Source of the DNA: Hoplostethus atlanticus
Taxonomy: Eukaryota; Chordata; Actinopteri; Trachichthyiformes; Trachichthyidae
Assembly (NCBI GenBank): GCA_034670405.1
Contig: JAXDDX010000006.1
Location: forward strand, 10,413,501 to 10,477,500
Direction: 5' to 3'
DNA: 64,000 bases
Shown: in pieces, positions 14,801 through 62,313 of the stretch
Position numbering within the stretch: the stretch's first letter is position 1
Layout of the letters: every line of letters begins with the position of its first letter
Made by a program: the position numbers and the translations under genes
Notes under the pieces: model-generated
Told to the model about the DNA's origin: nothing
The model's database searches: none
Seen by the model: the letters and a program-made list of their open reading frames with translations, nothing else

Positions 14801-17800
14801 TATTATTTGTCTGTCCTTCAGGCCAGTACTCAGACAGAGGCGGTGAAGGCCCCTGTTCCTGTCCCCAAGGTCCTGAAGAACAAGGCCCTGCTCTGTAGAC
14901 CCATTGTCCAGAACAAGGGGGTCTCTTGTAAACCACAGACAGCCGACACCGAGGCACAGACAGGTAACACACACCCAGATTCACTTTATGAACCAACTAC
15001 AATAACAATGCGACGGCAATGCATTCTACATTCATACACTTGCAGATTAAATACTTCTGCTCATTTTAGCTGAGTAGTAGTATTTTCACTCATGCTGAAA
15101 TATTTACTCCATCGCAAGCAGCATCAAAATTGAAAATGTATCAATTTAAGCATAAACTTTGTCCCTGCGTGTGCTTGTCCATTTCATTGTCAGCATTTTC
15201 TGCAGAAAATGGGTTTGTCACAGTGGTAATGGCTGACTAACTTAGCCATGATTGGAAGTTTGTGAACCTCTTGTGCAATTTTCATGTTTTTTAGAGGAAA
15301 TTGTGCATGCAGGAAAATGAAAATAATTGTAAAGAAATTAGGATGGGGGGTGATCTCTGACGGTGATCTTTCACACGGAGATGGACCCAGTGATCCCTCA
15401 CTGGGTCCATCTCCCTGTATGAATCCATCACTGATCCTGCGGAATTTGTTCAGTTGCCGAATTCTGCTGTAGCATTCTGGTCTGTTTTCAGAGCTCTGAT
15501 ATTTGATTGTCTCTCTGTTCTCCAAAGATGACCTCTTCCCCAAAGTGCTAGTCCTGCCTGTCCCAGTGCCAGTGTTTATTCCTGTGCCTATGAGCATGTA
15601 CAGCCAGTACACCCCAAAGCCAGTGGCCCTGCCCTTACCGGTATGTCTAACAACCCTGGAGCCGGATTCACAAAAGGCCTTTGAAGTGTAACTGTCAAAT
15701 ATGCTAGCTTCTTTTTTTTGAGACATACACCTGAGCCCTGAGGTGAGACTCCAAAAACTCATATTTTTCCCAAACTGTGTATCACAGCTACCTGTGCCCA
15801 TGTTCCTTCCTGTAACGCTGGACAGCGCTGAGCGAATTGTGGAAACCATCCAGGAGATCAAGCAGAAGATCCCCTCCGACCCCTTCGAGGCAGAGCTCAT
15901 ACTCATGGCTGAGATGGTGGCTGAGCAGGATGAGAAGGATGTCAAGGAGAGTCAGAAGGACAGAGTGGTGGAGCAAGAGGGAGAAAGGCCAGAAGCTCAT
16001 GCCCCGGATGGTATACATTTTAATGTTATGATGTGAATTGATTAAAGTTTATTACTAATGAAGAAGAGCCCACTTAGGCTAAAAAAGATAACATTGAAAA
16101 TATGAAAACATTATGAACTGAATACATAAGTATTACTAAGTATTAAAAACATATACTACTTATTATAAAGTAGTCCGAAATAGTTCAAAGCAAATGCACA
16201 TCGAAATGTAAAAGTTATCTTTTTGAATTCCTAAATATCGACCTAACCCTTGATCAGTAAGGTTTCTGCACGTCTGGATAGTTGGGAAATGTGTGGAAAA
16301 CAAATTTGATCAAGTTTATTATTATTATCCAGAGCATGGCAGTAACTACAGCGATGACCTGGACACAGACGACCTGGCCAGCTTCCTCAACAACTGGGAG
16401 GACCCCTCCTCTGACACCAGCCTCAGGTCACACAATCGATCGTGCGCCCACGAGAAGCTCCACCCAGTCTTGGACGTTCCCATGGGCATGCCCAGTGAGC
16501 CTTATTTTGAGCCTCCGCCTCCAGCCCCACCTCCCATGGACATCGAGGCCGACTTCCCTGTTGGTGAGAGGACGAGTTGTACAAACTCAATTTCCTCAGT
16601 TATTTTATGCTTTTCTGGGCCAGGGGGAGGATATTAAAGAACAATTTCTAAGAATGTTCTTTTATTATTTTTATTATTATTATCATCATCATTTGCAGTG
16701 GTGGTAATTTAGGGTGCTTTCACACTTTTAGTGAACTCAGTCTGCCAAAAGTTCGGGCATTTGTGATCGCTCCAAACAATCTCAGACCCCTCCTGAAGCG
16801 AACTCGGTCTGAGGAGGAGACCAAATTATTAACTGGATCATTGGGTGAAGCAAATATTATTGAATGCACAGCAAGCCTGTTGATTTATCATTGAAGGGAA
16901 TTTCTAATTTAGTGTTTCTTCAGTGCTGCCATAATTGTGTCAGCATTGCACTTTTTATTTTATGGCATTTGAGTGTCACAGTTTGTGTCCAAACTTTTTT
17001 TTTTATTATTGAAAGCTATTCTGTTAACCTTTGTATTGTAATTATTTAAATATAAAAGAAATATAAAAAGGAAATGGATGCTGCAACCGGGTCTGAGTTC
17101 CAAAGAGTGTGAATGGAAATGTACTGAGATCCCTTTAGAGCACCAGAACAAGAACTGAGTCCTCTTTCAAGTGAACATTGTGTGGATGCAAAGGGAACTG
17201 AGTTATTTTGTCTTTTCGTCCACTTAAAGAGAGCTGAGTTTGGTTCATCTTAAGAGAACTATATGTGAAAACGCCTCTACCTTTATCCTGGATTTGGTCC
17301 TAGTTAGAGTTTTAGTGGAGGCTATAGTGTGTAGTCAGCAAGATACACTATAGCCTCCACTATAGTGTATCTTGCTGACTACACACTATAGCCTCCACTA
17401 TAGTGTGTAGTCAGCAAGATACAGGTTCAAAAATGTAACATTTTAAGTTATCACCCACCACCATTGAAATGTCTGTAGATCTTTTTCATGCTTTGTCTGA
17501 TGTTTCATCTGATATAATTTCCAGAAACTCTGGAGATGATGGCCAAGCTGAGAGAGGAGGCTCAGCGTTCCCCCAGCCCTCTGCCTGCCCCTTCCCGACG
17601 GCGACAAGCTCACAGGAAAGCCAGGGACAAAAAGAAGGTAACAACGGCGTGGCAAGGGAGTTTAGAGGATGTTCAAATGTTTACTTACGCTTAATGTGCC
17701 CAAAATAAGATCAGATTGGATTTGCACATTCTCAGTGTGTTGCCTTGATCACATCCGTGTTGTAAAATCCTCTCCCCTCACTCCTCTCAATCCCAGGGTC

Positions 17801-23571: not shown

Positions 23572-26500
23572 ATGGCAAAACAGATAAGGCAACTGAGTCC
23601 TGAACAAGATGCCATCGATCACATAATTGCTCGTAGAGACAAATCCCTGCTGGAAGAAAGGTTTATCAACACCTTTAAAGGTAGGTGGTGCATCTCGTAT
23701 AGTGTACTGTACTGCTGGTATGGCTGGTTAATACATGTGCACAATGGGGATAATAACACAACTGTCATTCTTTCTTGCATTGTTAGTCTGCGAGATATAT
23801 ATTTGGCCGACATTGTTGGTATTTGCTTTGGGGACAGGGAAAACTAAAATGTTTAATTAAACATAAAAAAAACTTAGTAGGCACCGATAGGCAGCATTTA
23901 TCTTTTTGTGAGGCTAGCTATCAGTAGGTTATTTGCACATCAAATGGATCAATTTGAATAATTTTTTAATTCTTATTTTTGGTGGTGTAGGAAGAGGTGT
24001 GTTTTCCTGTGAAACCATTGAACCGTCCACCTTTGTAGTAGAATATCGTGGGAATATCATCTCTCACAAAGAAAGTCTGAAGAAGAAACTTGATGATACG
24101 GAGAACAATTATTTGTTTGACTTTTTATGGAATGGAAGACCCTGGTGGTAAGTTTGCTGCTTGTTTTATGGTATATAACAACATTTTCTGGGAAAATCTC
24201 CATTATGGCAATTTGGTGTAAACGGAGGGCCCTTGGTGGGATTTACAAAGCATGAGGTCATACAATGTTTATCTATAAATCTGTAAATCTCTAAATGCAT
24301 TTTGAAATCTTGCTAATTGGCCCCTCCTCTCAGCGGCTCTGCATCAGTGTACAGTTAGTATGGCTGGCACGCAAAGGTGATATTATTGTTTAAAATAATG
24401 CTGTTTTCTCCTTGATGTTTTCATTATCATTCTCTGACAGACCCGTTTCTTAAACTGTTTTTTAGTATTTATATCAGATATGATATAGGTGTATTACATG
24501 TTCCATATTTAGATTCTAAAATAATTCTTTCACTATTTTAGGTTTCAAAGTATTACAACATTTACTTGTTGTCTTACATTTATGTCTAAATTTCATGTTT
24601 GAGGTGTACGATCAGATTCAGAACATTATAGGTTGTATGTCGCATCATTTGCTAGCATCTGGCAAATTTGATCTGGAAGTAAATAGTTAAACCATAATTT
24701 ACATTTCTGAGTGTGAATTTGGCAAATGTATACAGCAAATATGCTGTGGTAAAACAATGTTATTACGGTCAATAGTTTTTCATCCATAAAATTGCTCAGC
24801 TTGAAAAAATAATTGTGATTAAAAAAAATTGTGATTTAAAAAAAATACAAAATAAAGTGATAGTCTTGAATGATAGAATTTTGACGCATCTAACAATTTA
24901 TGGTAGAATTTGGTCAGAAAAGTTGAGTTTTCATATTTTGCTTTCAGCATAGATGCTTCAAAAGAGGATGTGACCCTTGGAAGAATTGTAAGAGATGATC
25001 ACACAAATCCCAACTGCAAAATGAGGACAATCATTTTTGAAGGAAAGCCACATTTGTGCTTATTTGCAATGAAAAAAATATCCCCTGGCGAGGAGATAAC
25101 ATATAACCATGGGGATTCCTCTTGCCCATGGCGCCCAGGGGTAAGTTTATCTTCTGTTAATATCACATATAATGTTTTTTAACTAACTGTGCAGCAGTTG
25201 TGCTATTTGTGTGGAAGTACATGTTCTGTTGAGGTAAAGGTTGATGGACTTATATATTGTAATCACTGTTGTTGGTACAGTTACATTTTGACGTATGATT
25301 TCTCTGGTCTGTTTGCTGTATTTTCTATTCTTCTAGTACATTTGTCTGTAGTGAAAAATGTCTGGTTGCAACAGCTTACTTCCTGAGAAAAGACGACGAT
25401 TCATGATTACTATGAGCTAATGATTGTTGTGGAAGTCGACATAGATATTTCTTAATCTATTTTTAACGTGTGTGTGTGTGGGTGGGTGTGGGTGTGGGGG
25501 TGTGTGTAAAAGTAAATAAAATTGCCTTTGAATTTGAGCAAATAAGATTTATTGTTCATCTTTCCAGTCAGAAGACTTGAAAGCTTCCAGTTCTGAAGAA
25601 TCCTGCTCTGATGAAGACTACATACCTGACAGTGCACCAATTAGTGATTCAGATGATTCTTTCACCACCATCGATGATCAGACGGCACCAACTGTCAAAC
25701 ACGAGTCAGACTCTTCTGAGGAGAGGATGATGAATGTGTCACAACCCAAAGACTCTTCATGCTTCCAGCAGGAGGACAATACTGCTTTCAGGTCTGACAA
25801 ATCTGGCACCGTAGACCACATACCCAGTGAGGGCTCTTCTTGCACCAAAAAAAATCACTGTTATGTTTGCGGGAAAGCTTTTTCTAAAATTGCTCGTCAC
25901 CTTGCAAAACATAAAGATGAACAGTCTGCTATTGCTAAAGCATTCGCATTCCCTAAACACTCTAAGGAACGGAAAAGGTTACTTGAGAAGTTACGAAACC
26001 AAGGTAATTTCCAACACAATCGAGAGGTTTTGCAGAATCAGAGTGGACAACTGAAACTGAAAAGAAGACCTACAAAAACAAACCTCTCACTGACTGGCAA
26101 AAAATATGTGCACTGTCTATATTGTAAAGCAATGTATCTTGGTACGGAGTTGTGGCAGCATGTGCGCAGATGCCCTTTCAAGACTGTGTCAGACACAGAA
26201 GAAGAAGAACCTGGTAGGACTAAAGTCTTAGCTCTGGTTGCTATTGCTGAGTCAATATTCGGCCAACAAATTTCTTCTGGTCTGCAGAAGATGCTCGGAC
26301 ATATGAAGCAAGATGAGATTGCATCTGTAGTTCAAACCGATTTACTCATATTGCAACTGGCTCAGTCTCTCTACAATAAGCACGGACAAGATCCAACAAA
26401 AGCGGAATACATCAGACAGAAGCTAAGGGAAATGGGAAGGTTCTTGTTAACCTTGAGAAAAATATCGAAAAATCAAATATTTAGCTTTGAGGATGCTGTA

Positions 26501-27731
26501 AAACCTAACAATTTCAAGAAAGTCATTGAGGCTGTCAAAGAGGTTGCTGGTTTCAACGAAGAGATGCACTCTTATCACACACAAAGTCTTGCACTGAAAT
26601 TGGGAAATTCGCTTAGGAAGATTGGTGACATTATCCTCACCTGTGCCCTTGCAACTGATAACGATGAGCAGGTGATAAAGGAAGCTGAGAGATTTACAAG
26701 ACTTTGCTCAAATGTCTCTTACACTGGTCTTGCTGCTTCGAGCAAACCAAAGTTAAAGGAATCATCTACCATATCATTCACACGCGATGTACAGCTACTC
26801 CACCAGTACCTAGAAAGGAAATCGGCTGATGCAATTAAAAGCCTGAAGGACCATGAGTCCCCCCAGACTTATTCAAAATTTGCAAGAGTGACACTCACAC
26901 AAGTAACTATCTTCAACAAATGGTGTGCAACAAAACTTTCAAAAATGACACTCAAGTCTTTCGAGCAAAGGGACCAGACTGCATTCCACGAAGACATAGC
27001 TGGTGGCCTCTCACAGGTCGAGCAAAAGCTATTCAAGCACTTCATCAGGGTAGAGATTAAGACCAAACGTGGCAGAAAAGTTGCTGCTTTGTTAAACCCT
27101 GAAGTTGTCAGTGGAATAACACTGCTGGTAAACAAAAGAGATGCATGTGGTGTACATAGGGACAATCCCTTCCTATTTGGAAGGCCCAACTCCCATTTTA
27201 CTAGCTTCAGACCACAGAACTGCATCAGGAGTTTTGCAAGTCAGTGCGGTGCACAGAACCTGGGGTGTTTCAGTGCGGGACATCTTCGTAAACATGTTGC
27301 AACACTGTCCCAGATTCTGAGCCTCAGGGATAACGAGCTTGAACAGCTTGCTAACTTTTTGGGCCATGATATTCGGGTCCACAGAGATTTCTATCGGCAA
27401 CCAGAGGCAACTATAGAACTTGCAAAAATCTCAGAGCTACTACTGGCAATGGGGAAAGGATCTCTTGCAAGATTCCAAGGAAAATCTCGTGAGGAAATTG
27501 AGATTGAGATTGAGGGTATGTACCCAATTTCGTGGGTGTGTGGGTGTGTGTGTGGGTGGGTGTGTGGGTGTGTGGGGCAGCACACATAATGTGTAACACA
27601 CATGTATACATATCCTGCTTTTCTTTCAAGATGAATTGGAACCAGATCTGGAGGGGGACAATGCAGAAAATAATGATGATGAGGAAGACTATGAAGTGTC
27701 AGGTCCTTCCCTAAGACCAAGCAGTATGTAA
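23572..27731 (+). CDS. KMT5A-like SET domain fused to Crypton-type tyrosine recombinase, likely pseudoenzyme
   Basis: Coding exons 23572-23680, 23991-24147, 24948-25140, 25568-27515 and 27631-27731 join in frame to 835 codons. Residues about 37-153 form a SET domain (GRGVFS, FVVEYRG, GKPHLCLFA, GEEITYNHGD) of the KMT5A-like type common in fish. Next come an acidic linker, CYVCGKAF..H..H near 251 and CLYCKAMY..H..C near 335. A tyrosine-recombinase region spans about 560-780: KRGRKV, then LRKHVATLSQ, then FLGHDIRVHRDFYR with the presumed nucleophile Tyr. From memory of the fish family, the SET Asn in the NDDH/NHS position is Arg here (IVRDDH), the second Tyr of YxYG is His, and the RRxGE segment with the first catalytic Arg reads WCATK. 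The frame is open but both activities look lost. The usual C-terminal SANT-like exon was not found. A noncoding exon 1 ends at 22941. Confidence 0.75.
27517..27590. repeat. (GT/GGGT)n tract directly after a splice donor
   Basis: A G- and T-rich simple repeat fills most of the 115-base intron between the last two coding exons of the SET-recombinase gene, immediately after donor GTATGT. A similar (GT)n lies at about 25467-25508 in the preceding intron. Confidence 0.7.
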
Positions 27732-28409: not shown

Positions 28410-31400
28410 ATGAAACATGAGTTATATTCTCATGTACCTGTATTTCCTCTAGATCCAGCTCCCCCAGAGGACTCTTTTTCTGCGTTGGAGACAGTCGGCA
28501 CAGATTTATCCCTGAGCGGAAGTGTGCTGGGCAGCACCGCTGAGTGTGAAAAAGAGTTTGCAGAGTTGTCAAATAAGAAAGAAGGTGATGAGTTAAAGGC
28601 AGAGAAAGTGGGAGAGAAGGTCAACAGCTTAGAGGAAATGCCTACGAGAAGTGCTTTTGATGAGGACACAAACATGGACACAACTCCTTGCAGCGACTTG
28701 GAGACCACAAACATCTGTATTACTGGTGAGAAGGTGTACATGGACACCAATGAGGACATTGGCACAAAGGAGGACAATGAGCGAGATGGTGACTCAAACA
28801 GCTCGGCAGGAAAGCCTGTGGTAACAGCTGTGAAAGATGGGACAAAGCAGGAGGAGGACAAGAGTGATACTAAGAAAAAAAAGTCTCTTCACTGCACAGA
28901 CGAACAGAAGGATTTGATGGAAGTGGAAAGCGCCAGTTCCTCCATGCCCTTTAATTTAAATACAGGTAAAATAATTAGAACAAATTTTTTTTTTTTTTTA
29001 AAGCAATTTTCATGACAAATGTTACAAAGTGCTTTTTCACATAAGAAAAGCCCAAAAGTGCAAAATACAAGTGATTAAATACAATCAAAATAAATGAAAA
29101 CTGTTAGAATGTCACCATAAATACAAGGCTTCCTAAGTCCATTTAAGTCCACATTGATTTAATCACAATGACATTAATGACATTTCAGTTCATACTGTAA
29201 TGACTCTGGTTTGAATAAGGTGGCCTGTAGTCAAATGTTGACGGGTGTCATCCATCCGTCCATCAAACGTGACAAAGATGACATTTCAGGCCATTGTAAA
29301 TAAGAATTTTACTAATTGACATACCAGGTGAAATAAATGTTTAATACGAATCTCAGACACCACAGGTCTGATTTTGACGAAACTGGGAGGGAGATCTTCG
29401 CACCACCGGTCCGACTTTGGTGATGCATCTTGCTACCAAATGGTCCAAGACGTGCCTGCATCATTCATGGGATGTTTCACTTATTTTATTTGTACCATTA
29501 CTATTCACAGTAAATCTTATCACATGTTGCAGATGTTCCTGCAGGATGGGACAGCACATTATCGGCTGTAGTGAAGGGGATGAAAGTAGTCAAGGTGTCA
29601 CTACCAAAATTGGATGTTGTGAGTATCCTATTTCTTGCTATCTTGTCCCATGTAATAATTGTAATAAACTGCCTCATGGTATGAATTAACGCTATAGCTT
29701 GAGGTTCACACCGCTAGCAACCACATCGCTAGCAACCACATCGCTCTGCTACTGTCCAATGTCTGATTTTGAGCTTGTGCATTCCTATCTGTAATGCCTG
29801 TAATGGCTTTCCAAGTTGCTTGCAGTGTGAATGCATCAGGTCAGAACTGAGAAGGGACAAGAATAGTAATAGTAACAACTGCAAAGGTACATACACTTGC
29901 ACTCACTCATGCTGTCTTAAATGTTAAGGTAGTCGAGTGACGACTTTCCAATGTTCAAGCCAAATGGCCACATGATTGACAGGTTTGAATCCTGTTCATG
30001 CCCTTCCACCAAGAAAGTAATTTTCTTTCCTCCGCATGTGGTCCTAAATGTAACTCAAGTGACATAAAAAAGGTCTTAATAAGTCTTAATCTAACTCGTA
30101 ACTACACGCAGCCAGGAAGGTGATTGTGGCTGTACATAAAGTCCAAACCTGGACATCTTGCTTTTTTTTGTTTTTTGGTAAAATGGGCAGTCTGCTCCCC
30201 TCAGTATGTTTTCATGATTGAGACAGTGGGAAAACTGAGAGGGACACAAGTAGAGGAGACACAGTAGCGGATATTCTGATTTGATCGTAGGCCAACAGGG
30301 TTACATGTAGGTCCAGACCTCTACACCATCACTGGGCACCGTCTTAACAATCTGTTGTTGACAGGAGGACTTAAAGATTGGTTCGGTCTTGTCCGAGATG
30401 GGAAACTCTGCATCTCCAGCAACCAAAACACAGTCCACATCCGCCCTCATCTCCCCAACTGTGCCCATGTCTTGTTTCCACTGCAAGAAGACCCTGATGA
30501 AAGGACAAAGAGCATATCAGAGGAAGGGCTCTCCATATGTCTTCTGCTCCACTTCCTGCATCCCTGCAACACTAGGTACTAGACAATCGTTTTATCAAGG
30601 TTGCATTTCTTCCTCGCTCTCTGTCCTTACTGTATATTTCCCTCACAGTCTCGGTGACGGAGGACAACAACTCCCCTGTTGCAAAGCACGTAGAGGAGAA
30701 ACCCAGTGTATTACCACAGCTCACGGAGGAGGACCAATCAGAGGATGACATGGTACCAGTAGATTTGCTGCGGCTCAGTTCTTCTCCGTCTTGTGGAGCC
30801 ACAGCCAGTTCAGGTGAGAGACATGGCTTCAGAGTGAAGGTGCTTGGGGTGTCTCCAGAAAAGGAAGTTTGGTTTTTTGTCTCGAGACCACAATGTGGAG
30901 TAAATCCCGAAATTTCCGAATTCATTGAGGTGCAGAATAACCAAGCAAAAATTCCCAACTACCAAGCTATAACTGCTACACCACCGGTCCGATTTTGATT
31001 TTTTGATTTTTTGATTTAGTTTGTTTTGTTCCCATATTCGCAATAAACCTAATCATATGTTGCACATGTTCCTATAGGCGGGGACAACACATCGTCGGCC
31101 ATGGTGAATGGGATGAAAGTGTCAGTACCAAAATTGGACAATGTGAGTATACTACATTTCTTACTACCCTCTTTCACATAATAATTGTACAAAAAAACAA
31201 CAACTGTACTAGGACAGTACTAGGGTTGTACTAAGATTGTACTAGGACTGTACTAGGATTTTCTAGGATTTTGATATTTTGTATTCAAAGTACCATTGGC
31301 GTGCAGGCCTTGTTGAGCTGTAAACATATATTTCACTGCCATCTGGGATGTCAAAACTTTGATGCTCAATATGTCAGAACTGCACTTTACCCAGGCGTTC

Positions 31401-34400
31401 TCTGTCCTAGGAGCAGTTGCAGGCTCCAACCCAGACATCCCAGAAACTGTCTACATGTAACCCAGTGAAGCCGTCCCTCCCTCCATCCCTGGTCGAGGGG
31501 AATGATCAGCCCATGGATGAGGAGTGCAACCAGGCTCTAACATCCTCTACATCCACGGTGGGCGCTGGCGACGAGCCTAATACTGCAAAGGTAGTGCACA
31601 CACTTCTTTTCACAAGGAGTTGGAAAGTTATACAACTTGTACAAGCAAATATAAAGCATGTATCTAAGTATACAGCCACACAAGGCAGAGGTATGAGATA
31701 ATGGTCTAAGTTACACGCTGTCTGTTGTTGTCAAGTGAAGACTTTCCAATGATCAGACCATGAGTGAGGACTTGCAACTTGGACTTAACAGGCTTGAGTC
31801 CTCTTCACACCTCTCCACCGTAAAAATGATGCTTGATTTTGAAAAAGCATCTTGCACCATCTTACCATTCTGTTGTTGACAGGAGGACTTGAAGATCGTT
31901 TCGGTCTTCTCAGTGACGGGAAACTTGGCGTGTCCAGCTACCGAAACACGGTCCACTCCCACCCTTGTTCCCCCAGCCTTGCACAAGGAGTGCTTCCTCT
32001 GCAAGGAGAACCTGATGGACGAACAGATAGTTTACCAGAGGAATGGCTGCCCAGACATCTTCTGCTCCACTTCCTGCCTCTTCACAACACGGCCACGCAT
32101 CAAACCAGCCACCAAGAACTGCTTCCGCTGCCATAAGTGAGTTTGGTAGAAAACATTTTCTTTCATCCTTTCTCATTTTCCTTGGATGATTTTCAAGGAA
32201 TGCACTTAATTTAAGTGTGTGTATGTCTGTCAGTTGCACAGATATTCAAACGGTAAGCCAGGTTCCTTCAGCTGGATCAAAATTTGAACCCAATTAGGGT
32301 CAATCAGGTGGCAGTAACCGGACTGAAGGGTTAATGAGGTTGTTATTGTATGGGGTTGTGGCTCAATCAGACCAACTAACGTATAACCATTCTGCATGTG
32401 TCAAAGTTCACAGCCCTCATACAGAGATAACTACATTTTTGATCTCATCTCTCCCCGTTCTCAGGGTGATAATGCGGCCTCAGGATGTTATCCTGGCTCC
32501 AGTGGATGCTGACGGTATCATGAAGGAGTTGTGCAGCCAGACCTGCCTGTCCTCCAGCAACTACAAGAGGATATACAAACAGCCAAAAGTGCAGCATGTG
32601 TCACTCTGCAGCATGTGCCGCAAATACGGCAATGTAAGGGAAAAGGGAATTAAAGTTATGTTTTCATTTGTTTGTTTATTTTAATAAGGACAAACTTTAT
32701 TTGTAGTGCACTTTTCAAAACTGATAGTGTGACAGACAGTAAAACAAATAAAAGTCAGTATGTTTGACATTAATTAAGATTTTCATGATGTATTAATTAT
32801 GTTTCAGAGTAACTTATTCTGGGGTTATGGCCACTTGTTGATATGACACAACGAATTTGTCCTTTGTGGGCCTGCTTTGTTAAATAAATAAAGGATTAAT
32901 TATAACATACAAAATTAGATCAAAAACTAAAGTGAAAATATTAATAAAAACATTACACACACACCTTTAGCTCACTGCCTCTATTATCTATATTTACATT
33001 AATTGAAATGATTTAACTCTTCAGTAACACACCGCTCCTTTGTCATCCCTCCTGCAGAGCAAATATGAGATGGACCTGAACGGTGCGGCCCACAAGATTT
33101 GCAGTGATTCCTGCCTTACCCACTTCCGCTCTGTCAACAACCTGACCATGGCTAGCTGTGGGAACTGCGGCTCCTACTGCCACAACAAGCCCCTCATGTT
33201 GAAGATGGCGGACGGCAGCAAAACCCTCTGTGGTGCAGAATGTCTGGCCAAGTTTAAAGAGGTACAGAAATCAGAAATAAATACTACTGAATAATACTCC
33301 AAGGGTATTACGAAAACAAGCAACAAAACAACAACATAAAATAGGGATAAGCTAAGATTCATCTTTAACAACAAATAGCATTTCAGTATTTGATGAGATG
33401 TAACATTTGCAGCTCATAAGCACAGAATGAAGTCATTGATTTTGAAGCCATTTGAATCAGGGTGCAGGGTGGCCTGGAGTTTAACTGTTAATGAAGAGCA
33501 AAACACTGAACCTAAAATGCAATGGGTCCGATGTGCCTCTCATTCTGTTCTATTTTTCTTACTTCTTACTTGGCAGAAAAGCAAGACACTCCAGCCATGT
33601 ACCATGTGTCACACTTCCCAGCCGATGTCGTACATGGTCGATGACAAAAACAGTGAGAACACGGTGGACCTCTTCTGTACCACCGCCTGTGTGATGGCAC
33701 ACAAGGTCCAGACTGTCAGTGCATCAGGTACTGGACACTAGTTTTGTCAAGACTGCATCTCTCAAAGCCTCAACTCCCCTCACAAACAATCCAGTATATT
33801 TGACATTTTATGCTCTAATAAGCTAGATATCGCAAACATTCAAGAAACTTAGATATCAACCACCTTTCTAATAATTCTATCAGGTCATTGCTTCCTCTAG
33901 CTCTACTTCTCTATTGATCACCGTCATGGTCCCTAGTGCACAGAGCGGTCAGAGTGCAGAACAGCCTCGTTGGAGCTGGTAGGGAAGGACATTTAGATGC
34001 TTTCCGACACAATGGTTTGGACCCAGGTCGTTGGGTTGAAGGACACTTTCCCTAGTCACAAGCCGCGCTGCTGTCTATAAAAGCCCACTAATGGCTATAC
34101 TGTATATTTCCCTCAAAGTCTATTTAGTTTGTTTTGTTCCCATATTCACAGTAAATCTTATCACATGTTGCTCATGTAGGATGGGACAGCACATCATCGG
34201 CTGTAGTGAAGGAGATGAAACTAGCCACGGTGTCAGTACCAAAGTTGGACATTGTGAGTATCCTATTTCTTGCTATCCTCTCCCATGTAATAATTGCAAT
34301 AAACTCTAGTACACAACAGTTAGACTTACAACAGTAAGTCTTTTGTTGTCCTAGGAGAGGTTGCAGGCTGCAACCCAGATATCCTCTACATGTAACACAG

Positions 34401-37400
34401 TCAAGCCGCCTCTCTCTCCACCGCTGGTCAAGGTGAAGGATGAGAGCATGGATGAAGAGTACAACCAGGCTCTAACATCATCTGCATCCACTGTGGGCCT
34501 TAAAGGCGAGCCTAATACTGCAAAGGTATTGCACACACTTTTTTTCACAAGGAGTTATAGGAAAGTTATACAAGTTGTACAAGCAAACCTAATGGTAGAG
34601 GTATGCGAAAATGGTACACGCTGTCTTAAAGTTTGAAGTGGTAACCTCTGCCGTTTGAAAATGATGCTTGAAAAGAATGTTTATTTGAATGGGATTGTGG
34701 GTGAACATGAACAAAGTTGGACCCTTTTTTTCTGTTTTCATTAGTCGGCATCTTACCATTCTGTTGTTGACAGGAGATCTTCTCGGTGACGGGAAACTCT
34801 GCATCTCCAGCTACTAAAACACAGTCCACTTCCACTCTCGTCCCCCCGGCCTTGCATGTGGCCTGCTCCCACTGCAAGAAGAAGCTGATGGACAGTCAGA
34901 CAGTTTACCAGATGAAGGGCTGCCCAGACATCTTCTGCTCCACTCCCTGCCTCTCTGCAATCAAACCAGTCACCAAGAACTGCCACTACTGCTTTCAGTG
35001 AGTCTGGTAGAAAACAATATTTTTTCCTGCTTTGCTATGGTGCATTTCCTTTTCTCGGGATGATTTTCAAGGAATACGCTTCATTTTAAGTGTGTGACTG
35101 CGTGAGAAAGAAGAAGACATGTGAGTTGAACCACAATTTAGTTATTTCCAAGTCCATGGTCACGGTAAGTCATGGATAGTGCTGACTAAATCTTTTCCTG
35201 ATTGTGAATGTTGGCTTGATTTCATCCCTCCCTGTTCTCTCAGGGTGATAATGCGGCCTCAGGATGTCATCCTGTCTCCGGTGGATGCTAAGGGCACTAT
35301 GAAGGATTTCTGCAGCCAGACCTGCCTCTCTTCTTTCAACTACAAGAGGAACGTCTCCACCAAGATACCCCTACAGCCGATAGCATCACAGTCACTCTGC
35401 AGCATGTGCACCAGATACTGCATTGTAAGGAAAAGGGAATGGAATCAAATAAAATCTAAATCTTTTTGTAATAATAAATGCCATCAGTAATAATAAACTT
35501 AGTAATAAACTTTAATAAACACTTTTAAGGGATATGTATCCTTTATTTAACCCTGAAGTAACCGGCTCCTTTGTCATCCCTCCTGCAGAGAAACTACGAG
35601 ATGATCCTGAACGATGCGGTCCACAAGATTTGCAGTGATGCCTGCTTTGTCCGCTTCTGCACAATCAACAACCTGACCATGGCTAGCTGTGGGAACTGCG
35701 GCTCCTACTGCCACAACAAGCCCCTCATGTTGAAGATGGCGGACGGCAGCAAAACCCTCTGTGGTGCAGAATGTCTGGCCAAGTTTAAAGAGGTACAGAA
35801 ATCAGAAATCATAACCGGCGTCACTTAATTTGCCGCAGTAAATATAGAGGAATTTCTCTTGGTGGGATTGGTGCAATCGAAGTGTCCTTGAGCGAAACAT
35901 TTAACCCCTACCTGCTCGCTCATTCAGAGTCCCTCTGCAAAGGCGGTCAGCTAAATGTAAAATGCCATGGGTAATACTGATCTTGTGAAGTGCATCGCCC
36001 TTTCTAATTTGTTTCTGTTACTTGGCAGAAAATCAAGACACCCCAGCCGTGTACCATGTGTTGCACTTCCAAGCTGATGTCAAACATGGTTGAAAACAAA
36101 AACAGTGAGGACACGGTGGACCTCTTCTGTACCACCGGCTGTTTGATGGCACACAAGGTCATGACTATCAGTGCATCAGGTACTGGACAGAGATTGTGGA
36201 TCTTTGCTGTCAGAAGTTGCACAATCTCTCTTATCTTACTAACCCCCCCCCCCCCCCCCCCCTCTCTACAGGTGCCCTGTTGACTTGTGACAGCTGTGGT
36301 AAGACTACAGCACCATCCCACCACTTGGCCATGTCAGATACCTCCATCAGGAACTTTTGCAGTCTACCATGTGTCATTGCTTTTCAGGTAATGTAGCCTA
36401 CAGGCTGTAGGACTTTTAAAATCCTAGAAGACTGTGAGGGGAACACTAGCAGATGTCTAGTATCATTGCTGTATGGGCACACAAACGTAAAGAGTTAGCG
36501 GTAGGGATCACAAAGTTGATGACAAGGAGCATCACATACAAGGATCACCTGTGATGGGCGTCATCGACAGAGCGCAGCAATTCAGAGTATTCTCAGAGTA
36601 TTCTGTGTATTTGTGTATACAGGGATTATGGGGATCAGGAAATTCAATCATTACACTTTTTTCCTTTTCTGTATCACAGGAGAAGTTCAAAAAGGCCCAG
36701 AAACTGCGGGCTGTTGCCACTAAGGCCCCGGTAGCTTCCGTCCAGATCCAGCCCTCTACGTCTAACCCCCCCCAGCCTGACGTCCCCGTAGGCCCAGCAA
36801 AACTGCCATGCTTCCACTGCTACCGCCTCATAACCACTAAACCTAAACTCATCCAGATCAAGGTAACTTGTCCTCTATGTGCGAGGATTTCAGTCTTACA
36901 CTATTCCTGTGTGACAGCATTGACCTACCTACTGTTAGCCTCCTGCCTTGTGAGCTGAGGAATTGTGACTGTTGATGATGTACACATGCACACTCATTGT
37001 TACAGTTGTTATTGTTACAAATCAAACTCTGTGTGCAGGACCAGATGGTTTTTGTGTGTAGCTTGGACTGTTCTCAAGAGTTTAAGAAGGCCAACTTTGT
37101 GACGAGCCTGTGTGAATACTGTAAGATGGAAAAGGTCACCAAGGACGTCAAGAGAATCAACAACAAAGACTGCCACTTCTGCAGTGACGGTACGTTGACA
37201 GACAGAAATGTCCGCAGGACTAATTCAGGGGTTTGTCGTCTAGTTTCTGTCGGTTTATCTTCAGATGTGTTTATGGGCTAGTTCATAGTAGTTTTGCCCA
37301 AAACAAAATGTATCCTTTAGGGGAAATTGGGTCAATAGCAGCAAATGAAAGGCTACAGATAAAAGTACAAAAATCATCATGATGCTAATAAATTTCAAAT

Positions 37401-40400
37401 CCTCAAATCCAGCTGTATGGAAATTGTAAATTGAAAATGTTTTGGGACCCTGAGCCTCTCCTCTCTCCCTTCCCAGGCTGTAAGCTGCTGTATAAACATG
37501 ACCTGGCCAAGAGCTGGGGGAAACACTGTCGCTGCTGTGCCTACTGCTTGTCCATCTCCAAGGTGCTGGTGAGAGGAAAGTATAGAGGAACGGCCAAGGA
37601 GTTCTGCTCTGACGCTTGCAGGTCCAATTACACCATGCTCTTCCGCCATGTAAGCTAGCCTGAATGACAGAGTTGTTAAACTGGTGATCACGATGTAGAT
37701 GATGTGGATGCTGTGCGCTGCCTCCATGGTTGTTCTCTTCTTTTTCTCAGGTTGCCAAGTGTGACACCTGCAGTCGCAAGAGGAAACTGATGCAGAGCCT
37801 TCCCATACTGGGGAAGGTCAAACATTTCTGTGACCTGAATTGTCTGCTACACTTCTGCAGCAACAAGACGTTCACCCTGGGCCGGGTAGTCACCAAGGGT
37901 ATGTAATTCCCATTGAGACACTCTTGATTGTTAGTCAGTTCAGGTCTGCAGTATCTCTGTTCTTTGTTTTTTCTCTTCCTTACCTCTCTGTGTCCCTGGA
38001 TCTGCAGGTACAATTGAGGCCACTCCTGCCATCGCTAACGTTGCATCGCTTGCTAGTGCTAAGACTGGGCAGTCCAATACCTCTGCCAGCACTGCCCAGC
38101 AAGGTATACACACACACACACACACGCTTGCATGTATTGTATATGAGATAGAGAGATATTGATGCATATACTGTAGATCAGTTACTGTCCTAACTTTCAC
38201 CCTCATGGACATCAGGGTGTTGATTGTGCAGGTTTGCTCTTTTTTGCTGACTTATACTCTGTCATTGTCTCCACAGGCACTGTCCGTAATGTTCGAACAA
38301 AGATCCTCAGACATGTAAGTTGAGGGAATGAAAACAGGCTCATTTTAAAGCTTATTCCTTGTATCCCACAAAGGAGGACTTCTTAATAACTTGGTTGAGT
38401 TGCAGTTGTGAAATGATTGTCTTTCCTAAAACTCCCATTCTTTAGGCACATAACTGAGGTACTTATGGTGAGCTGCACCTTTTTAATTAATGGTTAGTTG
38501 GATAGCAAGGTGGGTAATGAGTAGGGAGACCCGGCTTCAAACCCCTGTACTGGTAAGCATCTGCCTGCTGTGCTTGAGCAAGACACTGAATCCATACCTG
38601 CTCCAGGGAGGCTGTTCTGTATTTGACGCTGACCTCTGACCTCTGATTCTTCCGTGGTGAAATGATCAGTTCCCAATTAAATCAGCATAGAAATTAACCA
38701 TGTCTATTCAGTTCTGTTGAGACAAGTCGAGTCGTACGTTCAGAAACAGAATCAGCTGTTCAGTCATTGTTGTCCAAGAGCTGTGGGCCTCCAATATGGC
38801 TGCCAGAGGGTGTGTTAAAAGCCCTCTATAGATTTCCACGTATTATTATTATTGTTTTTGTCATTGTGGTTATTATTATTATTGGTGATCTTATCATTAT
38901 TGTTATTATTATTTGTCTGTCCTTCAGACCAGTACTCAGACACTGGAGGTGAAGGCCCCTGTTCCTGTCCCCAAGATCCTGAAGAACAAGGCCCTGCTCT
39001 GTAGACCCATTGTCCAGAACAAGGGGGTTGGCTGTGAAACACAGACAGTCGACACCGAAGCACAGACAGGTAACACACACCCAGACATTATTTTAATAAA
39101 CCAACTACAATAAAGGGACTGGAATGGACAGAGACGCTATTCTCTGTCCACGTTGAAATATTTACTTTACAATTAATATTCAGTTGCACACACACACACA
39201 CACACACCCTCTTCTGTTTGTTTTCAGAGCTCTGATATTGTCTGTCTCTCTCTGTTCTCCAAAGATGACCTCTTCCCCAAGGTGCTAGTCCTGCCTGTCC
39301 CAGTGCCAGTGTTTATTCCAGTGCCTATGAGCATGTACAGCCAGTACACCCCAAAACCCATAGGCCTGCCCTCCCCGGTATGTGCAACCCCTCATGTTGT
39401 TTGGACCTTGATTTAGCCGAGGACATTACTGGGGAAAATCTGAAATTACAATATGTTATTGCCTTTATTTATAAGAAACCTGTACTTAAATCAGAGTTTC
39501 TTAAGCACTAGGACCCAAAATGGGCTGTGGCCCTCAAATTTGGCTCAGGCTGAAAAGATTTTGAAAAACTCAAACTCACTGTCCCAAACTACGTATCACA
39601 GCTCCCTGTTCCCATGTTCCTTCCTGTAACGCAGGACAGCGCTGAGTGCATTGCGGAAACCATGCAGGAGATTGAACAGAAGATCCCCTCCGACTCCTTC
39701 AAGACAGAGCTCATACTCATGGCTAAGCAGGATGAGGAGGATGAGGAGGATGTCAAGGAGGATGTCAAGAAGGAGGGTCAGAAGGACAGAGTGGTGGAGC
39801 AAGAGGGAGAAAGGCCAGAAGCTCATGCCCCGGATGGTATACATTTTAATGTTATGATGTGAATTGATTAAAGTGTTTATTACTGATTAATAAAAGAGAT
39901 CCAGAAAATGTGTAGGAGCCCCGGATCAATAGTTCCTCTGTCTCCACTGTCCAGAGCTTGCCAGTAACTACAGCGATGACCTGGACACAGACGACCTGGC
40001 CAGCTTCCTCAACAACTGGGAGGACCCCTTCTCTGACACCAGCCTCAGGTCACCCAATCCATCGTGCGCCCACGAGAAGCTCCACCCAGTCTTGGACGTT
40101 CCCATGGGCATGCCCAGTGAGCCTTATTTTGAGCCTCCGCCTCCAGCCCCACCTCCCATGGACATCGAGGCCGACTTCCCTGTTGGTGAGAGGGAAGTTA
40201 TTTTATGCTTTTCTGGGCCAGGGGGAGGATATTAAAGAACAATTTCTAAGAATGTTCTATTATTGTTGTTGTTATTATTGTTATTATAATTATTATTTGC
40301 AGTGGTGGTTGTGGGTAATATAATTTGTGCCTCCACCTCCATCCCAGTTTTGGTCCTATTTAGGCTGCAGTGGTATGCAAGTCTCCTAAGATACAGGTTC

Positions 40401-43263
40401 AAAAATGTAACATTTTAAGTTATCACCCACCACCATTGAAATGTCTGTAGATCTTTTTCATGCTTTGTCTGATGTTTCATCTGATATAATTTCCAGAAAC
40501 TCTGGAGATGATGGCCAAGCTGAGAGAGGAGGCTCAGCGTTCCCCCAGCCCTCTGCCTGCCCCTTCCCGACGGCGACAAGCTCACAGGAAAGCCAGGGAC
40601 AAAAAGAAGGTAACAACGGCGTGGCAAGGGAGTTTAGAGGATGTTCAAATGTTTACTTACGCTTAATGTGCCCAAAATAAGATCAGATTGGATTTGCACA
40701 TTCTCAGTGTGTTGCCTTGATCACATCCGTGTTGTAAAATCCTCTCCCCTCACTCCTCTCAATCCCAGGGTCGTAAGTCGCAACGGGTAGCGGAGGAAGC
40801 TGCAGCGGTGACGTCTCTAAGAGGCTGTTCCAACAAGGCCAAGTCTAAGGACCCACCCAAACTGAAGAGTCAATATGGAATTGATGCCTGGAAGAGATGG
40901 ATCCAGTGGAGGGAAACCCAGCCCAACATGGAGACGCCACGCTTTGGTTGTGAGTCCAGACATACAACAAATACCGGCCCGCTGCTGGTCTCGCTCACTC
41001 TCAGCTAACCTCGTTCTGTAGTCGCGTTGGATAAAAGGGACCCTCAAAAAACTCATTATACTAAATAAAACCTCTCTTTTATCTTTACCTCAGTGCGTGC
41101 CATGAAGTTGAAGGAAGATGTGCTTCGCTGCACCACCACAGAGCTGCGCTACGGTCTCTGTTGCTTCATCAACGAGGCGAAACGACCCAACGGAGAACCT
41201 TACTCCTCTGACAGCTTGTTCTACCTCTGTCTCGGCATACAACAGGTAAGACTGATAACATCATGCAGACACACACAAAAAGGCCTTGTCTTTCACATGC
41301 TTGTGAAGCCCAGGAGACTGTAGGCCCTTTAGAGTCCTGGACACCCATCCTGCACAGTCCTCATACTTCGGCAAACTACAGTCCATATCCTGTAAAATCA
41401 CATTGGGACACTCACACAATTCTCATTGCTCTGTTCTCATCCTCATTTGTCTCTCTGTAGTACCTGTTTGAGAACGGACACGTGGAGAACATATTCAATG
41501 ATCATTTCTACTGCAAGTTCTCCATGGAGTTTACCAAGATGCTGAAAGATTTCAAACCCTCAATAACATCCAGTGGTAAAAGATCTTTTTAAGACTATTT
41601 TGACTTTCTGACTACTACATTTTTAACACATCCCTGTCCTCCTCACTCCGTCTCTCTTTTCTCCCTCGCTCGTCAGGCTATATCCATTCCCGCGTGGAGG
41701 AGGAGTACCTGTGGGACTGTAAACAGCTGGGGGCCTACTCCCCCATCGTCCTCCTCAACACCCTGCTCTTCTTCTGCTGCAAGTACTTTGGCTTCACCAC
41801 GGTGGAGCAGCACCGCCAGCTGTCCTTCGCTCAGGTCATGCGCTGCACCAAGACCAGCCCCAACAACACCAAGACCACCTTCCTGCGCTTCTATCCTCCC
41901 ATCTCCATGAACGAGTCAGAGACGCAGCCACAGTCCGGTACGATTGGGGCTGGTTCTGTATCAACTCTTGGTATCAAAATCGAGGTAGTGGGAAATAAAG
42001 AGAACCATGTCAAATCTGCAGAATCCAAATGAGAAACCAGCCCTAGGTACTGAACAGTAGTGCTGCTGCTACAGTCTGTAACTGGTCTACAGCAGGCCCA
42101 TTAGCAGACCAAATTTGTGATTTTTCTTTAACCCACAGGAGGCTTACAATGAATCTAAGACAATATTAGAAGATATTGATAGTCACATGAAAATTCTGGA
42201 AATACTTATACAGGATTTATGTGCTATTAAATTCTCTGTTCCTGCAGCAAATAGTTGGCCTGTTCTTTTAAAAAAGACGCATTTTTTTTTACATTTTGGA
42301 ATGATATTCGCTGAAAAAGATCAAGCTACCTGCAGTAGCAAGCAGAGTGCTGTGCTGTAGCGACCTGAGTGGAATCTCGTCCTATGACCTTTGCACATGT
42401 CATCCTCCTTTCACCTTCTCTCTATTTTCTCCCATCTCCACTGCACACTAATCTAATAATAAATCCTCATCACATGCATGCTTGTGTTACAGTCATTATT
42501 GTGTATATTGCGTCATATGCTTCACATTGCATATGCTTCAGATGCAGATGGTGTCCCGGCCAAGAAGCGTAAGGAGGAGGACAGGAAAGAGGACTTCCTG
42601 GAGATGATGGAGAACAGTGAGAACCATGTCCGCTGTCCAGTCAGGCTCTACAGTTTCTACCTCTCCAGGTGGTGAGTGCATTTCCACCTTTCTCCCTCTC
42701 TCTGGATGTTTGACCTGTTAAGCGTTGGGGTTTTGTGCTTCTTACACACAGTTTAAGTGAAAATTGTGCTTTTGATCCTAAGGCTGGACTGCCGGCCAAA
42801 GTGAACATCTATTACTTCTTCTCCCTCCTTCAAGTTCAGATCAAATCTAACCTCCTCCTGTCTTCAGCCCCAATAGGGAAAATAATTTATCTTGCCAGTT
42901 TGTATCATAGATTCCTGAAGAATTTAACTTCACATCACATTGAAACCCCTTAAACCCAGTTTCCCTCACTGTTCTAGGTCAGTCTCCCTAATCAGTAGGC
43001 CGCCTTCTTGGCACTAACATTTTTCTTTTCTCTTTCCATCCAGCTCAGAGTCGGTCAAGCAGCGCACCAACTTGTTCTACCTTCACCCCGAGCGCTCCTG
43101 CGTTCCCAACAGCCCCATGTGGTTCTCCTCCACTCCTCTGGACCACAGCACCATGGAGGCCATGCTCATCCGCATCCTCACCGTCCGAGAGCTGCATGTC
43201 AGGCCAGGCAAAGAGGGAGGGTGGGGGAGGGGGCGGAGGAAGAGGGCAGAGGACGCCCAATGA
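28410..43263 (+). CDS. zmym4: Zinc finger MYM-type protein 4, tandem copy B with repeated finger block (34 exons)
   Basis: Exons: 28410-28965, 29545-29618, 30365-30575, 30649-30813, 31078-31142, 31411-31590, 31883-32136, 32465-32633, 33058-33261, 33577-33727, 34180-34253, 34355-34525, 34774-34997, 35244-35424, 35589-35792, 36029-36179, 36272-36387, 36680-36862, 37039-37189, 37477-37649, 37751-37898, 38008-38103, 38277-38314, 38928-39069, 39265-39377, 39602-39836, 39955-40185, 40497-40609, 40769-40949, 41094-41245, 41461-41575, 41677-41937, 42542-42671, 43044-43263. They sum to 5,832 bases with every junction phase-matched, predicting 1,943 residues. The fingers number 15: one in a remnant block, five in each of two full blocks, and four shared. 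DUF3504 lies at about 1605-1930. The start is uncertain: the ATG at 28410 is simply the first in frame, and the first half of copy A exon 2 plus exon 1 are missing. The C-terminus ends AEDAQ in a different frame from copy A. Two adjacent genes or alternative transcripts are possible. Confidence 0.75.
29545..30575 (+). other. zmym4: Copy B finger-block remnant (block 0) with hybrid exon
   Basis: Two exons remain. One is a GWDST exon (29545-29618). The other (30365-30575) starts like the finger-1 exon (EDLKIGS..CFHC..CSTSC) but after PATL jumps to the splice donor of the finger-5 exon (G|GTACTAGACAATCG, compare 10600/10601). The SUMO exon and fingers 2-5 are gone. A deletion between the finger-1 and finger-5 exons made a chimeric exon whose donor is phase 1, so the frame into the next block is kept. 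Confidence 0.65.
30649..33727 (+). other. zmym4: Copy B finger block 1 (fingers 1-5 plus upstream exons)
   Basis: Seven exons correspond one to one to copy A exons 3-9, with all finger cysteines kept (CFLC..CSTSC, CFRC..CSQTC, CSMC..CSDSC, CGNC..CGAEC, CTMC..CTTAC). The block enters and leaves in phase 1. The intron upstream fuses the start of copy A's intron after exon 9 to the end of copy A's intron before exon 3, marking the tandem-duplication join near 30625-30630. The SUMO motifs of its exon 31411-31590 are lost. Confidence 0.7.
31208..31266. repeat. Short tandem repeat, about 10-bp unit
   Basis: GTACTAGGAC/GTACTAGGAT-type units occur about five times in the intron after exon 31078-31142. 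Confidence 0.6.
33935..34040. repeat. Diverged sister of the SINE-like remnant at 6955-7100
   Basis: GGTCAGAGTGCAG, GGAGCTGGTAGGG and GATGCTTTCCGACACAATGG align in order with the copy A stretch. This shows that block 2 was duplicated together with intron DNA upstream of exon 3. Confidence 0.5.
34180..36179 (+). other. zmym4: Copy B finger block 2 (fingers 1-5)
   Basis: Six exons match copy A exons 4-9. The exon 3 equivalent is deleted: at about 34102-34125 the old acceptor reads CCCTCAAAG instead of CCCTCACAG and runs straight into downstream intron sequence. Exon 35244-35424 and its upstream intron end are identical by eye to copy A 9308-9488, whereas neighbouring exons resemble block 1 more, a mosaic best explained by gene conversion. 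Confidence 0.7.
36241..36271 (+). repeat. Poly-C tract inside a splice acceptor
   Basis: About 20 consecutive C bases replace most of the polypyrimidine tract before acceptor CTCTCTACAG of exon 36272-36387. The copy A acceptor (11360-11386) has an ordinary mixed tract. Confidence 0.75.
38495..38690. repeat. SINE-like insertion in copy B intron 23
   Basis: Contains GGCTTCAAACCCCTGTACTGG and GTGCTTGAGCAAGACACTGAA, phrases of a widespread tRNA-derived fish repeat. The copy A intron (14638-14821) is 430 bases shorter and lacks it, so this insertion is specific to copy B. Related fragments: 35880-35970, 45855-45900, 53460-53590. Confidence 0.55.
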
Positions 43264-49815: not shown

Positions 49816-55380
<5,565 letters not shown>

Positions 55381-62206: not shown

Positions 62207-62313
62207 ACCAGCTTCCTTTACTGCATCATTTTAAGGTTTTCCTGCTTTATTAGAAAGTGTACAATGGAAGGACGTGGTACAAAGGTCACAAGTCTTATTC
62301 ATATTGGTAAAAA

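What the first reader, a model, noticed from the sequence alone, without database searches (positions are those of the whole stretch)
28410..36387. Internal repetition of a phase 1-1 exon block gives a 15-finger ZMYM4
Copy A has one block of finger exons bounded by phase 1 introns. Copy B has a remnant (29545-30575), a full block (30649-33727) and a second near-full block (34180-36179) before the shared 3' half. Because the block enters and leaves in phase 1, each repetition keeps the frame, and all 34 junctions and the 5,832-base total agree. The protein would carry 15 MYM fingers instead of 9, a sizeable change of binding surface made purely by exon-block duplication.
Basis: partly seen in the sequence, partly recalled or inferred. 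Interest (0 to 1): 0.8.

Follow-up and report, generated by a model that had tools for sequence, protein, structure and literature searches.

The report
Fish ZMYM4 duplicate with repeated fingers
A fish genome carries, next to its normal ZMYM4 gene, a second ZMYM4-like gene whose block of zinc-finger exons has been copied in tandem; related fishes share the design, some with even more fingers, so it is most likely an old gene variant and not an assembly mistake or a one-species oddity.

Summary
Copy B (28410-43263) reads as 34 exons, 5,832 nt, one terminal stop, with a finger remnant, a full block and a near-full block, all entered and left in phase 1. Corrections: 33 junctions, not 34; by C-x2-C...C-x3-C units, B has 16 fingers and A has 10.

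The interpretation needs re-dating. Of 167 fetched fish proteins, 44 (44 species) have more than ten units; 12 read exactly 12345-12345-12345-6..10. Percomorph blocks 1, 2 and 3 each form a clade; window block 1 pairs with Diretmus block 1. B looks like an old tandem ZMYM4 paralogue, probably decayed from three blocks rather than newly expanded. One shared origin versus independent duplication is not settled.

Finger cysteines are kept 20/20 in each block pair, but dN/dS is about 0.8. Near-identical tracts point to gene conversion with A.

B may not start at 28410: an upstream KMT5A-like SET plus recombinase-like unit (23572-27723) can splice in frame into B (2,762 aa), the layout of 19 listed percomorph models. 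No RNA was available.

The parts
28410..28965 (+).
   Evidence: BLAST match to A starts at 28427
29545..29618 (+). remnant exon e2 (phase 1 to 0)
   Evidence: region 29502-29670 is 88% to block-2 e2 region 34143-34305
30365..30575 (+). remnant exon: truncated e4 with finger 1, fused to the last bases of e7; donor weak
30576..30648 (+). 73-bp intron that is the tandem-duplication joint (end-of-block intron joined to start-of-block intron)
30649..33727 (+). B block 1, exons e1-e7 (30649-30813, 31078-31142, 31411-31590, 31883-32136, 32465-32633, 33058-33261, 33577-33727), fingers 1-5
34180..36179 (+). B block 2, exons e2-e7 (34180-34253, 34355-34525, 34774-34997, 35244-35424, 35589-35792, 36029-36179), fingers 1-5; e1 lost
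36272..37898 (+). B shared exons e8-e12, fingers 6-10
38008..43263 (+). B exons e13-e25: P/V-rich segment, QRICH1 domain and DUF3504 (Crypton-derived) domain
4983..20256 (+). copy A, single-block ZMYM4 (block 7151-10600), from the first ATG of its e0 to its stop; true 5' start not settled; e13 14340-14436 frameshifted
35187..35440 (+). likely gene-conversion tract: 252 of 254 bases identical to A 9251-9504
23572..25140 (+). three SET-domain exons (23572-23680, 23991-24147, 24948-25140), KMT5A-like; possible 5' part of B
25568..27515 (+). open exon of 1,948 nt (649 codons), recombinase-like by recalled motif; possible 5' part of B
27631..27723 (+). small exon, phase 1 out, resembles the junction segment of long percomorph proteins; or last exon of a separate gene (a stop follows on read-through)

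Best explanation
Copy B is the downstream member of an old tandem ZMYM4 pair in spiny-rayed fishes. In B the exon block coding for fingers 1-5, flanked by phase 1 introns, was tandemly duplicated by recombination inside those introns (shown: phases and the joint). At least two blocks stood before the window fish and Diretmus parted (from the pairing of their first blocks), and probably three (inferred from the remnant and the three-block relatives). In the window lineage the first block decayed to one finger, leaving 1+5+5+5 = 16 units, while gene conversion with A overwrote parts of block 2 and of the 3' half (inferred from near-identical tracts and conflicting trees). Likely mode of action (inferred from ZMYM2/ZMYM3): MYM fingers bind SUMO-2 and additional fingers add to binding, so a longer array would give B greater avidity for poly-SUMO or multiply sumoylated chromatin complexes, while fingers 6-10, QRICH1 and DUF3504 are shared with ZMYM4.
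For: 34-exon frame with phase 1 at every block edge. Duplication joint in the 73-bp intron. 44 of 167 fetched proteins have more than 10 units; 31 of the 44 have 18-20. Percomorph block positions 1, 2 and 3 form clades at 100/100, 100/100 and 100/99; window block 1 with Diretmus block 1 at 97/91 and 94/95 in a smaller tree. In percomorphs the 3' halves of multi-block (6 of 7 sampled, 100/99) and single-block genes (5, 100/100) are separate clades, so the pair is old there. Single- and multi-block genes sit on contigs of the same listed length in Diretmus, Micropterus, Chelmon, Xiphias and Mugil, and bear consecutive tags in Channa striata. Finger cysteines kept 20/20 in each pair against 69-79% of other residues, Fisher p 7e-4, 0.011, 0.0015; exon-length differences between blocks are all multiples of 3. 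Near-identical tracts: A/B2 252/254 and A/B 585/588. SUMO and corepressor binding by MYM fingers: PMC4136804 and PMC2532748 (passages).
Against: dN/dS of block pairs is 0.78-0.83, weak constraint. dS between A and block 1 is only 0.21, low for a very old split unless conversion or a slow clock explains it. The 3' halves of the window, Diretmus and Centroberyx pairs each group within their lineage, which separate tandem duplications would also give. AU tests do not reject blocks of window plus Diretmus as one group with their A copies (p 0.16), window-only (p 0.087) or the two window blocks as sisters (p 0.21); they reject Centroberyx block 1 with percomorph block 2 (p 0.019). Diretmus block 2 joins percomorph block 3 in the large tree (97/87) but is unplaced in the small one. 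The remnant finger scores highest against single-block ZMYM4. Six of 17 nucleotide gaps between blocks are not multiples of 3 and only compensate within an exon. No RNA; relatives are mostly gene models. SUMO binding was not shown for ZMYM4 in the passages seen, and there zinc was dispensable for it, so kept cysteines do not speak for that function.
Confidence: 0.7

Rival explanations
1. The blocks of the window gene (and perhaps its tandem pair) arose by duplication in the trachichthyiform lineage, independently of the percomorph array.
For: AU tests do not reject it: window+Diretmus blocks with their A copies p 0.16, window-only p 0.087, two window blocks as sisters p 0.21; 3' halves group within each lineage; dS A-B1 only 0.21; Centroberyx block 1 does not go with percomorph block 2, p 0.019.
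Against: These cost 14.9, 26.5 and 8.7 log units, while grouping window and Diretmus block 1 with percomorph block 2 costs nothing (p 0.49; in the 90-row set 12.6 units, p 0.26) and block 2 with percomorph block 3 costs 3.9 (p 0.35); holding all percomorph blocks as one clade is nearly rejected (p 0.053); similar upstream SET/recombinase unit.
Confidence: 0.25
2. The blocks are alternative cassettes: because all edges are phase 1, any block or the remnant can be skipped in frame, so short and long forms are made and the full 16-finger protein may be minor.
For: All block edges are phase 1; the remnant's donor is weak; an e13-less model exists in a relative (P0046), so cassette use may occur in this gene.
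Against: Multi-block proteins of other species are modelled with the blocks joined, including P0159 of Nothobranchius, whose accession series I recall as transcript-derived (not checked).
Confidence: 0.3
3. B is not a gene of its own but the 3' two thirds of a chimeric gene: SET (KMT5A-like), recombinase-like exon, then fingers, QRICH1 and DUF3504.
For: Five upstream exons are open and splice in phase to the e0 acceptor at 28453: 8,289 nt, 2,762 aa, one stop. 19 models in the list carry both SET and DUF3504 (2,377-3,401 aa, names of several annotation projects); colinear matches and similar junction segments in those examined.
Against: The SET/recombinase unit is a multi-copy family across fishes, and separate models sit on contigs of the same listed length in Mugil, Thalassophryne and Chelmon. 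Read-through of its last exon meets a stop at once and the exon's donor is weak (-0.6). Centroberyx and Diretmus multi-block models lack it. In the recombinase tree the window copy is drawn with a Centroberyx copy and 26 dispersed copies (99), apart from the percomorph locus copies; the tree is unrooted, so this is undecided. Annotation pipelines can merge neighbours.
Confidence: 0.4
4. B is a decaying pseudogene or the repeats are an assembly error.
For: dN/dS near 0.8 in the blocks; lost acidic tail and a decayed remnant.
Against: 5.8 kb open across 34 exons; finger cysteines 20/20 in each pair; blocks differ by 9-24%, too much for duplicated haplotypes; multi-block relatives in 44 species.
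Confidence: 0.07

Closest known systems
ZMYM4 (zinc finger MYM-type 4), single-block vertebrate form
   Same: Finger order 1-10, QRICH1 and DUF3504 domains, P/V-rich segment, exon phases as in copy A
   Different: B has the finger 1-5 block repeated (16 units against 10); Xenopus and human ZMYM4 are described with nine fingers (PMC10579616, passages)
Percomorph 'ZMYM4-like' or 'uncharacterized' multi-block proteins (e.g. P0121 Micropterus, P0124 Perca, P0143 Mugil)
   Same: Repeated finger 1-5 blocks before fingers 6-10; in several species on a contig of the same listed length as a single-block ZMYM4
   Different: 31 of the 44 have 18-20 units, i.e. about three full blocks; the window has two plus a one-finger remnant and near-identical tracts shared with A
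ZMYM2/ZNF198 and ZMYM3/ZNF261
   Same: Tandem MYM fingers; these fingers bind SUMO-2, and those of ZNF198 the LSD1-CoREST-HDAC1 complex (PMC4136804, PMC2532748, passages); DUF3504 (PMC3212892, passages)
   Different: Different paralogues with 5, 9 or 10 fingers by definition used; binding not tested for the window gene
KMT5A/SETD8 histone methyltransferase
   Same: The upstream SET exons match its SET domain at E 2e-18
   Different: Followed by a recombinase-like exon, in a multi-copy fish family

Membership tests
ZMYM4 | MYM/FCS zinc fingers incl. ZMYM4-type TRASH domain | tested here: met
   zf-FCS 114 bits, TRASH_ZMYM4 98 bits; 16 units
ZMYM4 | QRICH1 and DUF3504 domains at the C-terminus | tested here: met
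   144 and 219 bits
ZMYM4 | Nine or ten fingers in a single array | tested here: not met
   B reads 1 12345 12345 6-10; A reads 1-10. So B is a ZMYM4 paralogue, not a standard ZMYM4
Acanthomorph multi-block ZMYM4-like paralogue | At least two finger 1-5 blocks before fingers 6-10 | tested here: met
Acanthomorph multi-block ZMYM4-like paralogue | Three full blocks | tested here: not met
   two blocks plus a one-finger remnant
Acanthomorph multi-block ZMYM4-like paralogue | Block positions orthologous to percomorph blocks 2 and 3 | tested here: inconclusive
   allowed (p 0.49, 0.35) but the independent cases are not rejected (p 0.16, 0.087)
Acanthomorph multi-block ZMYM4-like paralogue | SET/recombinase unit directly upstream | tested here: met
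   colinear matches 23.5-27.5 kb; kinship to the percomorph copies unresolved; not in the Centroberyx and Diretmus models, so perhaps not defining
Poly-SUMO-binding MYM protein (works-like claim) | Fingers bind SUMO-2 | not testable with these tools
   shown for ZNF261 and ZNF198
Pseudogene | Stops or frameshifts in the reading frame | tested here: not met
   none in B before the last 15-20 residues

The most novel reading that the evidence does not exclude
B is the 3' part of a single chimeric gene kept in spiny-rayed fishes: a KMT5A-like methyltransferase domain, a transposon-type recombinase-like exon, a poly-SUMO-binding array of up to 20 MYM half-fingers built by exon-block duplication, and a second, Crypton-derived recombinase domain. 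It would be a SUMO-guided chromatin regulator assembled from two mobile-element proteins, with array length varying between lineages (16 in the window, 20 in many percomorphs) under gene conversion from ZMYM4.
Probability: 0.35. Interest if true: 0.78.

Novelty: new variant of a known kind. Interest (0 to 1): 0.55.

Why it matters
It shows how a chromatin protein's binding array can be lengthened by phase 1-1 exon-block duplication and kept across many fishes, which makes the effect of MYM-finger number on SUMO or corepressor binding testable with natural variants (10, 16 and 20 units). It also offers a case in which gene conversion seems to homogenise one part of a tandem pair while the repeated part keeps paralogue-specific history. 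The long multi-block models are listed in public databases as 'uncharacterized' or 'ZMYM4-like', and the paper searches made listed no paper that, by title or start of abstract, describes them.

Tried and rejected
Assembly artefact: rejected, because blocks differ by 9-24% and other species have multi-block genes. Recent window-only duplication: disfavoured, not excluded. Treating the remnant as a proven block-1 orthologue: not claimed; its finger scores highest against single-block ZMYM4, and among percomorph positions block 1 scores above 3 and 2 on average (113, 101, 75). Strong purifying selection over the whole blocks: not supported, dN/dS about 0.8. Literature on tandem ZMYM4 genes in fish: 'zmym4.1' had no hits; the Crypton paper lists ZMYM4a and ZMYM4b for zebrafish in a table and has no 'SET domain' in its text (passages). 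The window's own genome could not be searched, so other copies elsewhere in it are unknown. The species of the window is not known; copy A groups with Diretmus argenteus (96/88).

Selections behind counts. The 167 proteins are the best 120 listed of 1,709 (where only the 7,975 candidates sharing most words were scored) plus 47 new ones among the best 120 listed of 208, found with multi-block queries, so 44 of 167 is not a frequency. Of the 44, 12 read exactly 12345 three times then 6-10, and 4 more have 20 units with one or two odd labels. Unit models were built from the 112 of 167 proteins with exactly ten units by pattern; 111 of those 112 read 1-10 in order. The large block tree used 44 proteins (24 of the 44 multi-block relatives, 18 single-block relatives, winA, winB), 90 block rows; two short groups (the remnant and one Takifugu piece) were left out, a few unit labels out of order (6 or 10 before 2, 8 or 9 inside a block) were relabelled by position, and the bootstrap had not settled. 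Of four AU tests started on the large tree one finished; seven were run on the 35-row tree. The 3' tree has 25 rows; the recombinase tree has 59 rows, quick method, no bootstrap. Junction segments were printed for 24 proteins.
Full report
What is there. The window holds two tandem ZMYM4 genes on the plus strand: A, about 4.98-20.26 kb, and B, 28.41-43.26 kb. My exon model of B gives 34 exons, 5,832 nt, 1,943 amino acids and one terminal stop. The finger part of B consists of a remnant (29545-29618 and 30365-30575), block 1 (seven exons, 30649-33727), block 2 (six exons, 34180-36179) and then the shared exons e8 to e25. The intron phase at every block edge is 1. Copy A has one block, 7151-10600.

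How the repeats were made. The 73-bp intron after the remnant is a joint: 30574-30626 matches the end of A's block and the intron that follows it (49 of 53 bases), and 30628-30660 matches the start of A's block (33 of 33). Block 2 has lost exon e1, but a decayed copy of its acceptor region stands at 34081-34121 (37 of 41). So the duplicated unit ran from the intron before e1 to the intron after e7.

Finger number. Counting C-x2-C...C-x3-C units, A has 10 and B has 16. Published counts depend on the definition: 5 or 9 for ZNF198 and ZNF261 (PMC4136804, passages, where a finger in the first sense is an eight-cysteine unit, two of mine), 10 for ZNF198 (PMC2532748, passages) and nine for ZMYM4 (PMC10579616, passages).

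Relatives. The best-scoring proteins for the 3' half are ZMYM4s of Diretmus argenteus and Centroberyx gerrardi at 80%. With ten unit models built from 112 single-array proteins, 44 of the 167 fetched proteins, from 44 species, had more than ten units: 31 had 18-20, of which 12 read exactly 12345 12345 12345 6-10; Centroberyx reads 12345 12345 6-10, Diretmus 2345 12345 7-10, and the window B 1 12345 12345 6-10. The sample was drawn with multi-block queries, so this is no frequency. In Diretmus, Micropterus, Chelmon, Xiphias and Mugil the single-block and multi-block proteins are on contigs of the same listed length, and in Channa striata they bear consecutive tags.

Trees. In a tree of 90 blocks, percomorph blocks 1, 2 and 3 form three clades (100/100, 100/100, 100/99), so the triple array is older than the percomorph species sampled; window block 1 joins Diretmus block 1 (97/91), Diretmus block 2 joins percomorph block 3 (97/87), and window block 2 is unplaced (bootstrap not settled). 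In a 35-row tree window and Diretmus block 1 still pair (94/95), Diretmus block 2 does not place. On that set, joining window and Diretmus block 1 with percomorph block 2 costs nothing (p 0.49) and block 2 with block 3 costs 3.9 log units (p 0.35). Independent duplication costs 14.9 (window plus Diretmus, p 0.16), 26.5 (window with its A, p 0.087) or 8.7 (two window blocks as sisters, p 0.21), so it is disfavoured but not rejected; one clade of all percomorph blocks costs 23.2 (p 0.053); adding Centroberyx block 1 to the percomorph block 2 group is rejected (p 0.019). On the 90-row set the first grouping cost 12.6 units (p 0.26).

Gene conversion. The 3' halves tell another story: window A and B pair together (100/99), the two Diretmus copies pair (100/99) and the Centroberyx copies group (100/100), while percomorph single-block and multi-block genes form separate groups. 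Identity tracts of 252/254 (A with block 2 exon e5) and 585/588 (A with B at e19-e20) beside stretches at 75-90% point to conversion. Separate tandem duplications in each lineage would give a similar 3' tree, but not so easily the pairing of window and Diretmus block 1. Conversion also explains why block 2 sits near A and why synonymous distances between A and blocks 1 and 2 range from 0.00 to 0.37 by exon.

Is it constrained? For: finger cysteines are unchanged, 20 of 20, in each of three block pairs against 217/316, 249/314 and 218/306 other residues (Fisher 7e-4, 0.011, 0.0015); exon lengths differ by multiples of 3; 150 random substitutions left no stop in 1% of simulations (9-10% with 75). 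Against: dN/dS is 0.79 (A-B1), 0.78 (A-B2) and 0.83 (B1-B2); it is 0.46-0.53 for the remnant and 0.59 for the 3' half without e13. Six of 17 nucleotide gaps are out of frame and compensate within the exon. I read this as a gene kept open with loose constraint between the zinc ligands.

Where B begins. The BLAST match between A and B starts only at 28427. Just upstream, 23572-27723, lie five open exons: a SET domain (Pfam 61.6 bits; nearest solved structures KMT5A/SETD8, 2e-18), a 649-codon exon with a recombinase-like C-terminus (motif recalled; no Pfam hit above cut-off) and a small exon. They are colinear with the N-terminal part of long percomorph proteins that go on into the finger array; 19 models listed carry both SET and DUF3504, at 2,377-3,401 aa, and in many of the 24 proteins printed the junction segment resembles the small exon followed by e0. 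Spliced to the acceptor at 28453 the exons extend B in frame to 2,762 aa. Against fusion: the unit is multi-copy across fishes and stands as separate models in some species, its last exon can end by itself and has a weak donor, the Centroberyx and Diretmus models lack it, and in the recombinase tree the window copy is drawn with dispersed copies, apart from the percomorph locus copies, though the root is unknown. I leave this at about 0.4.

Mechanism. Shown for ZNF261 and ZNF198, not for this gene: MYM fingers bind SUMO-2, a second finger more than doubles binding, zinc is dispensable for it, and fingers 8-9 of ZNF198 suffice for the LSD1-CoREST-HDAC1 complex while SUMO2-HDAC1 needs most fingers. 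The inference is that repeating fingers 1-5 raises avidity for sumoylated partners while fingers 6-10 and the C-terminus keep ZMYM4's other contacts. The repeated block holds five half-units, an odd number, so finger 5 of block 1 loses its usual neighbour, finger 6; what that does is unknown.

Verdict. It is a new variant of a known kind: an old, partly converted, multi-block ZMYM4 paralogue, probably reduced in this fish rather than newly enlarged.

Noticed in passing
14340-14436 (copy A, e13): One extra base against B shifts the frame of A's exon e13; skipping e13 (phase 1-1) gives an open frame to the end, and a Polymixia model (P0046) lacks the same segment. It may be a lesion, a cassette or an assembly indel.
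   Followed up: partly
43200-43263: B's C-terminus is out of frame with A's in a G-rich stretch, so B ends early without the acidic tail found in relatives; the tail is open in another frame.
   Followed up: partly
23572-27723: Open SET plus recombinase-like unit between A and B; relatives are multi-copy across fishes and some are annotated inside other genes (NCK2a, PAK1).
   Followed up: partly
17416-18003 with 40388-40975: 585 of 588 bases identical between A and B over e19-e20 and the intron between, probably a recent conversion tract.
   Followed up: yes
about 51430-51750: ORF resembling adenylate kinase (recalled motif) downstream of B; a Takifugu multi-block model carries the Pfam domain PF00406 (P0161; adenylate kinase by recall), which hints at conserved gene order.
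   Followed up: no
80-430: ORF with a PHD-like cysteine pattern upstream of A (pattern recalled).
   Followed up: no
62313-62732: Tandem array with a 21-base spacing, open in frames on both strands.
   Followed up: no
P0004 and P0073: Some relatives' models of these genes start with other domains (PF05485, THAP, listed for P0073; similar look recalled for P0004), suggesting different 5' exons in different lineages.
   Followed up: no
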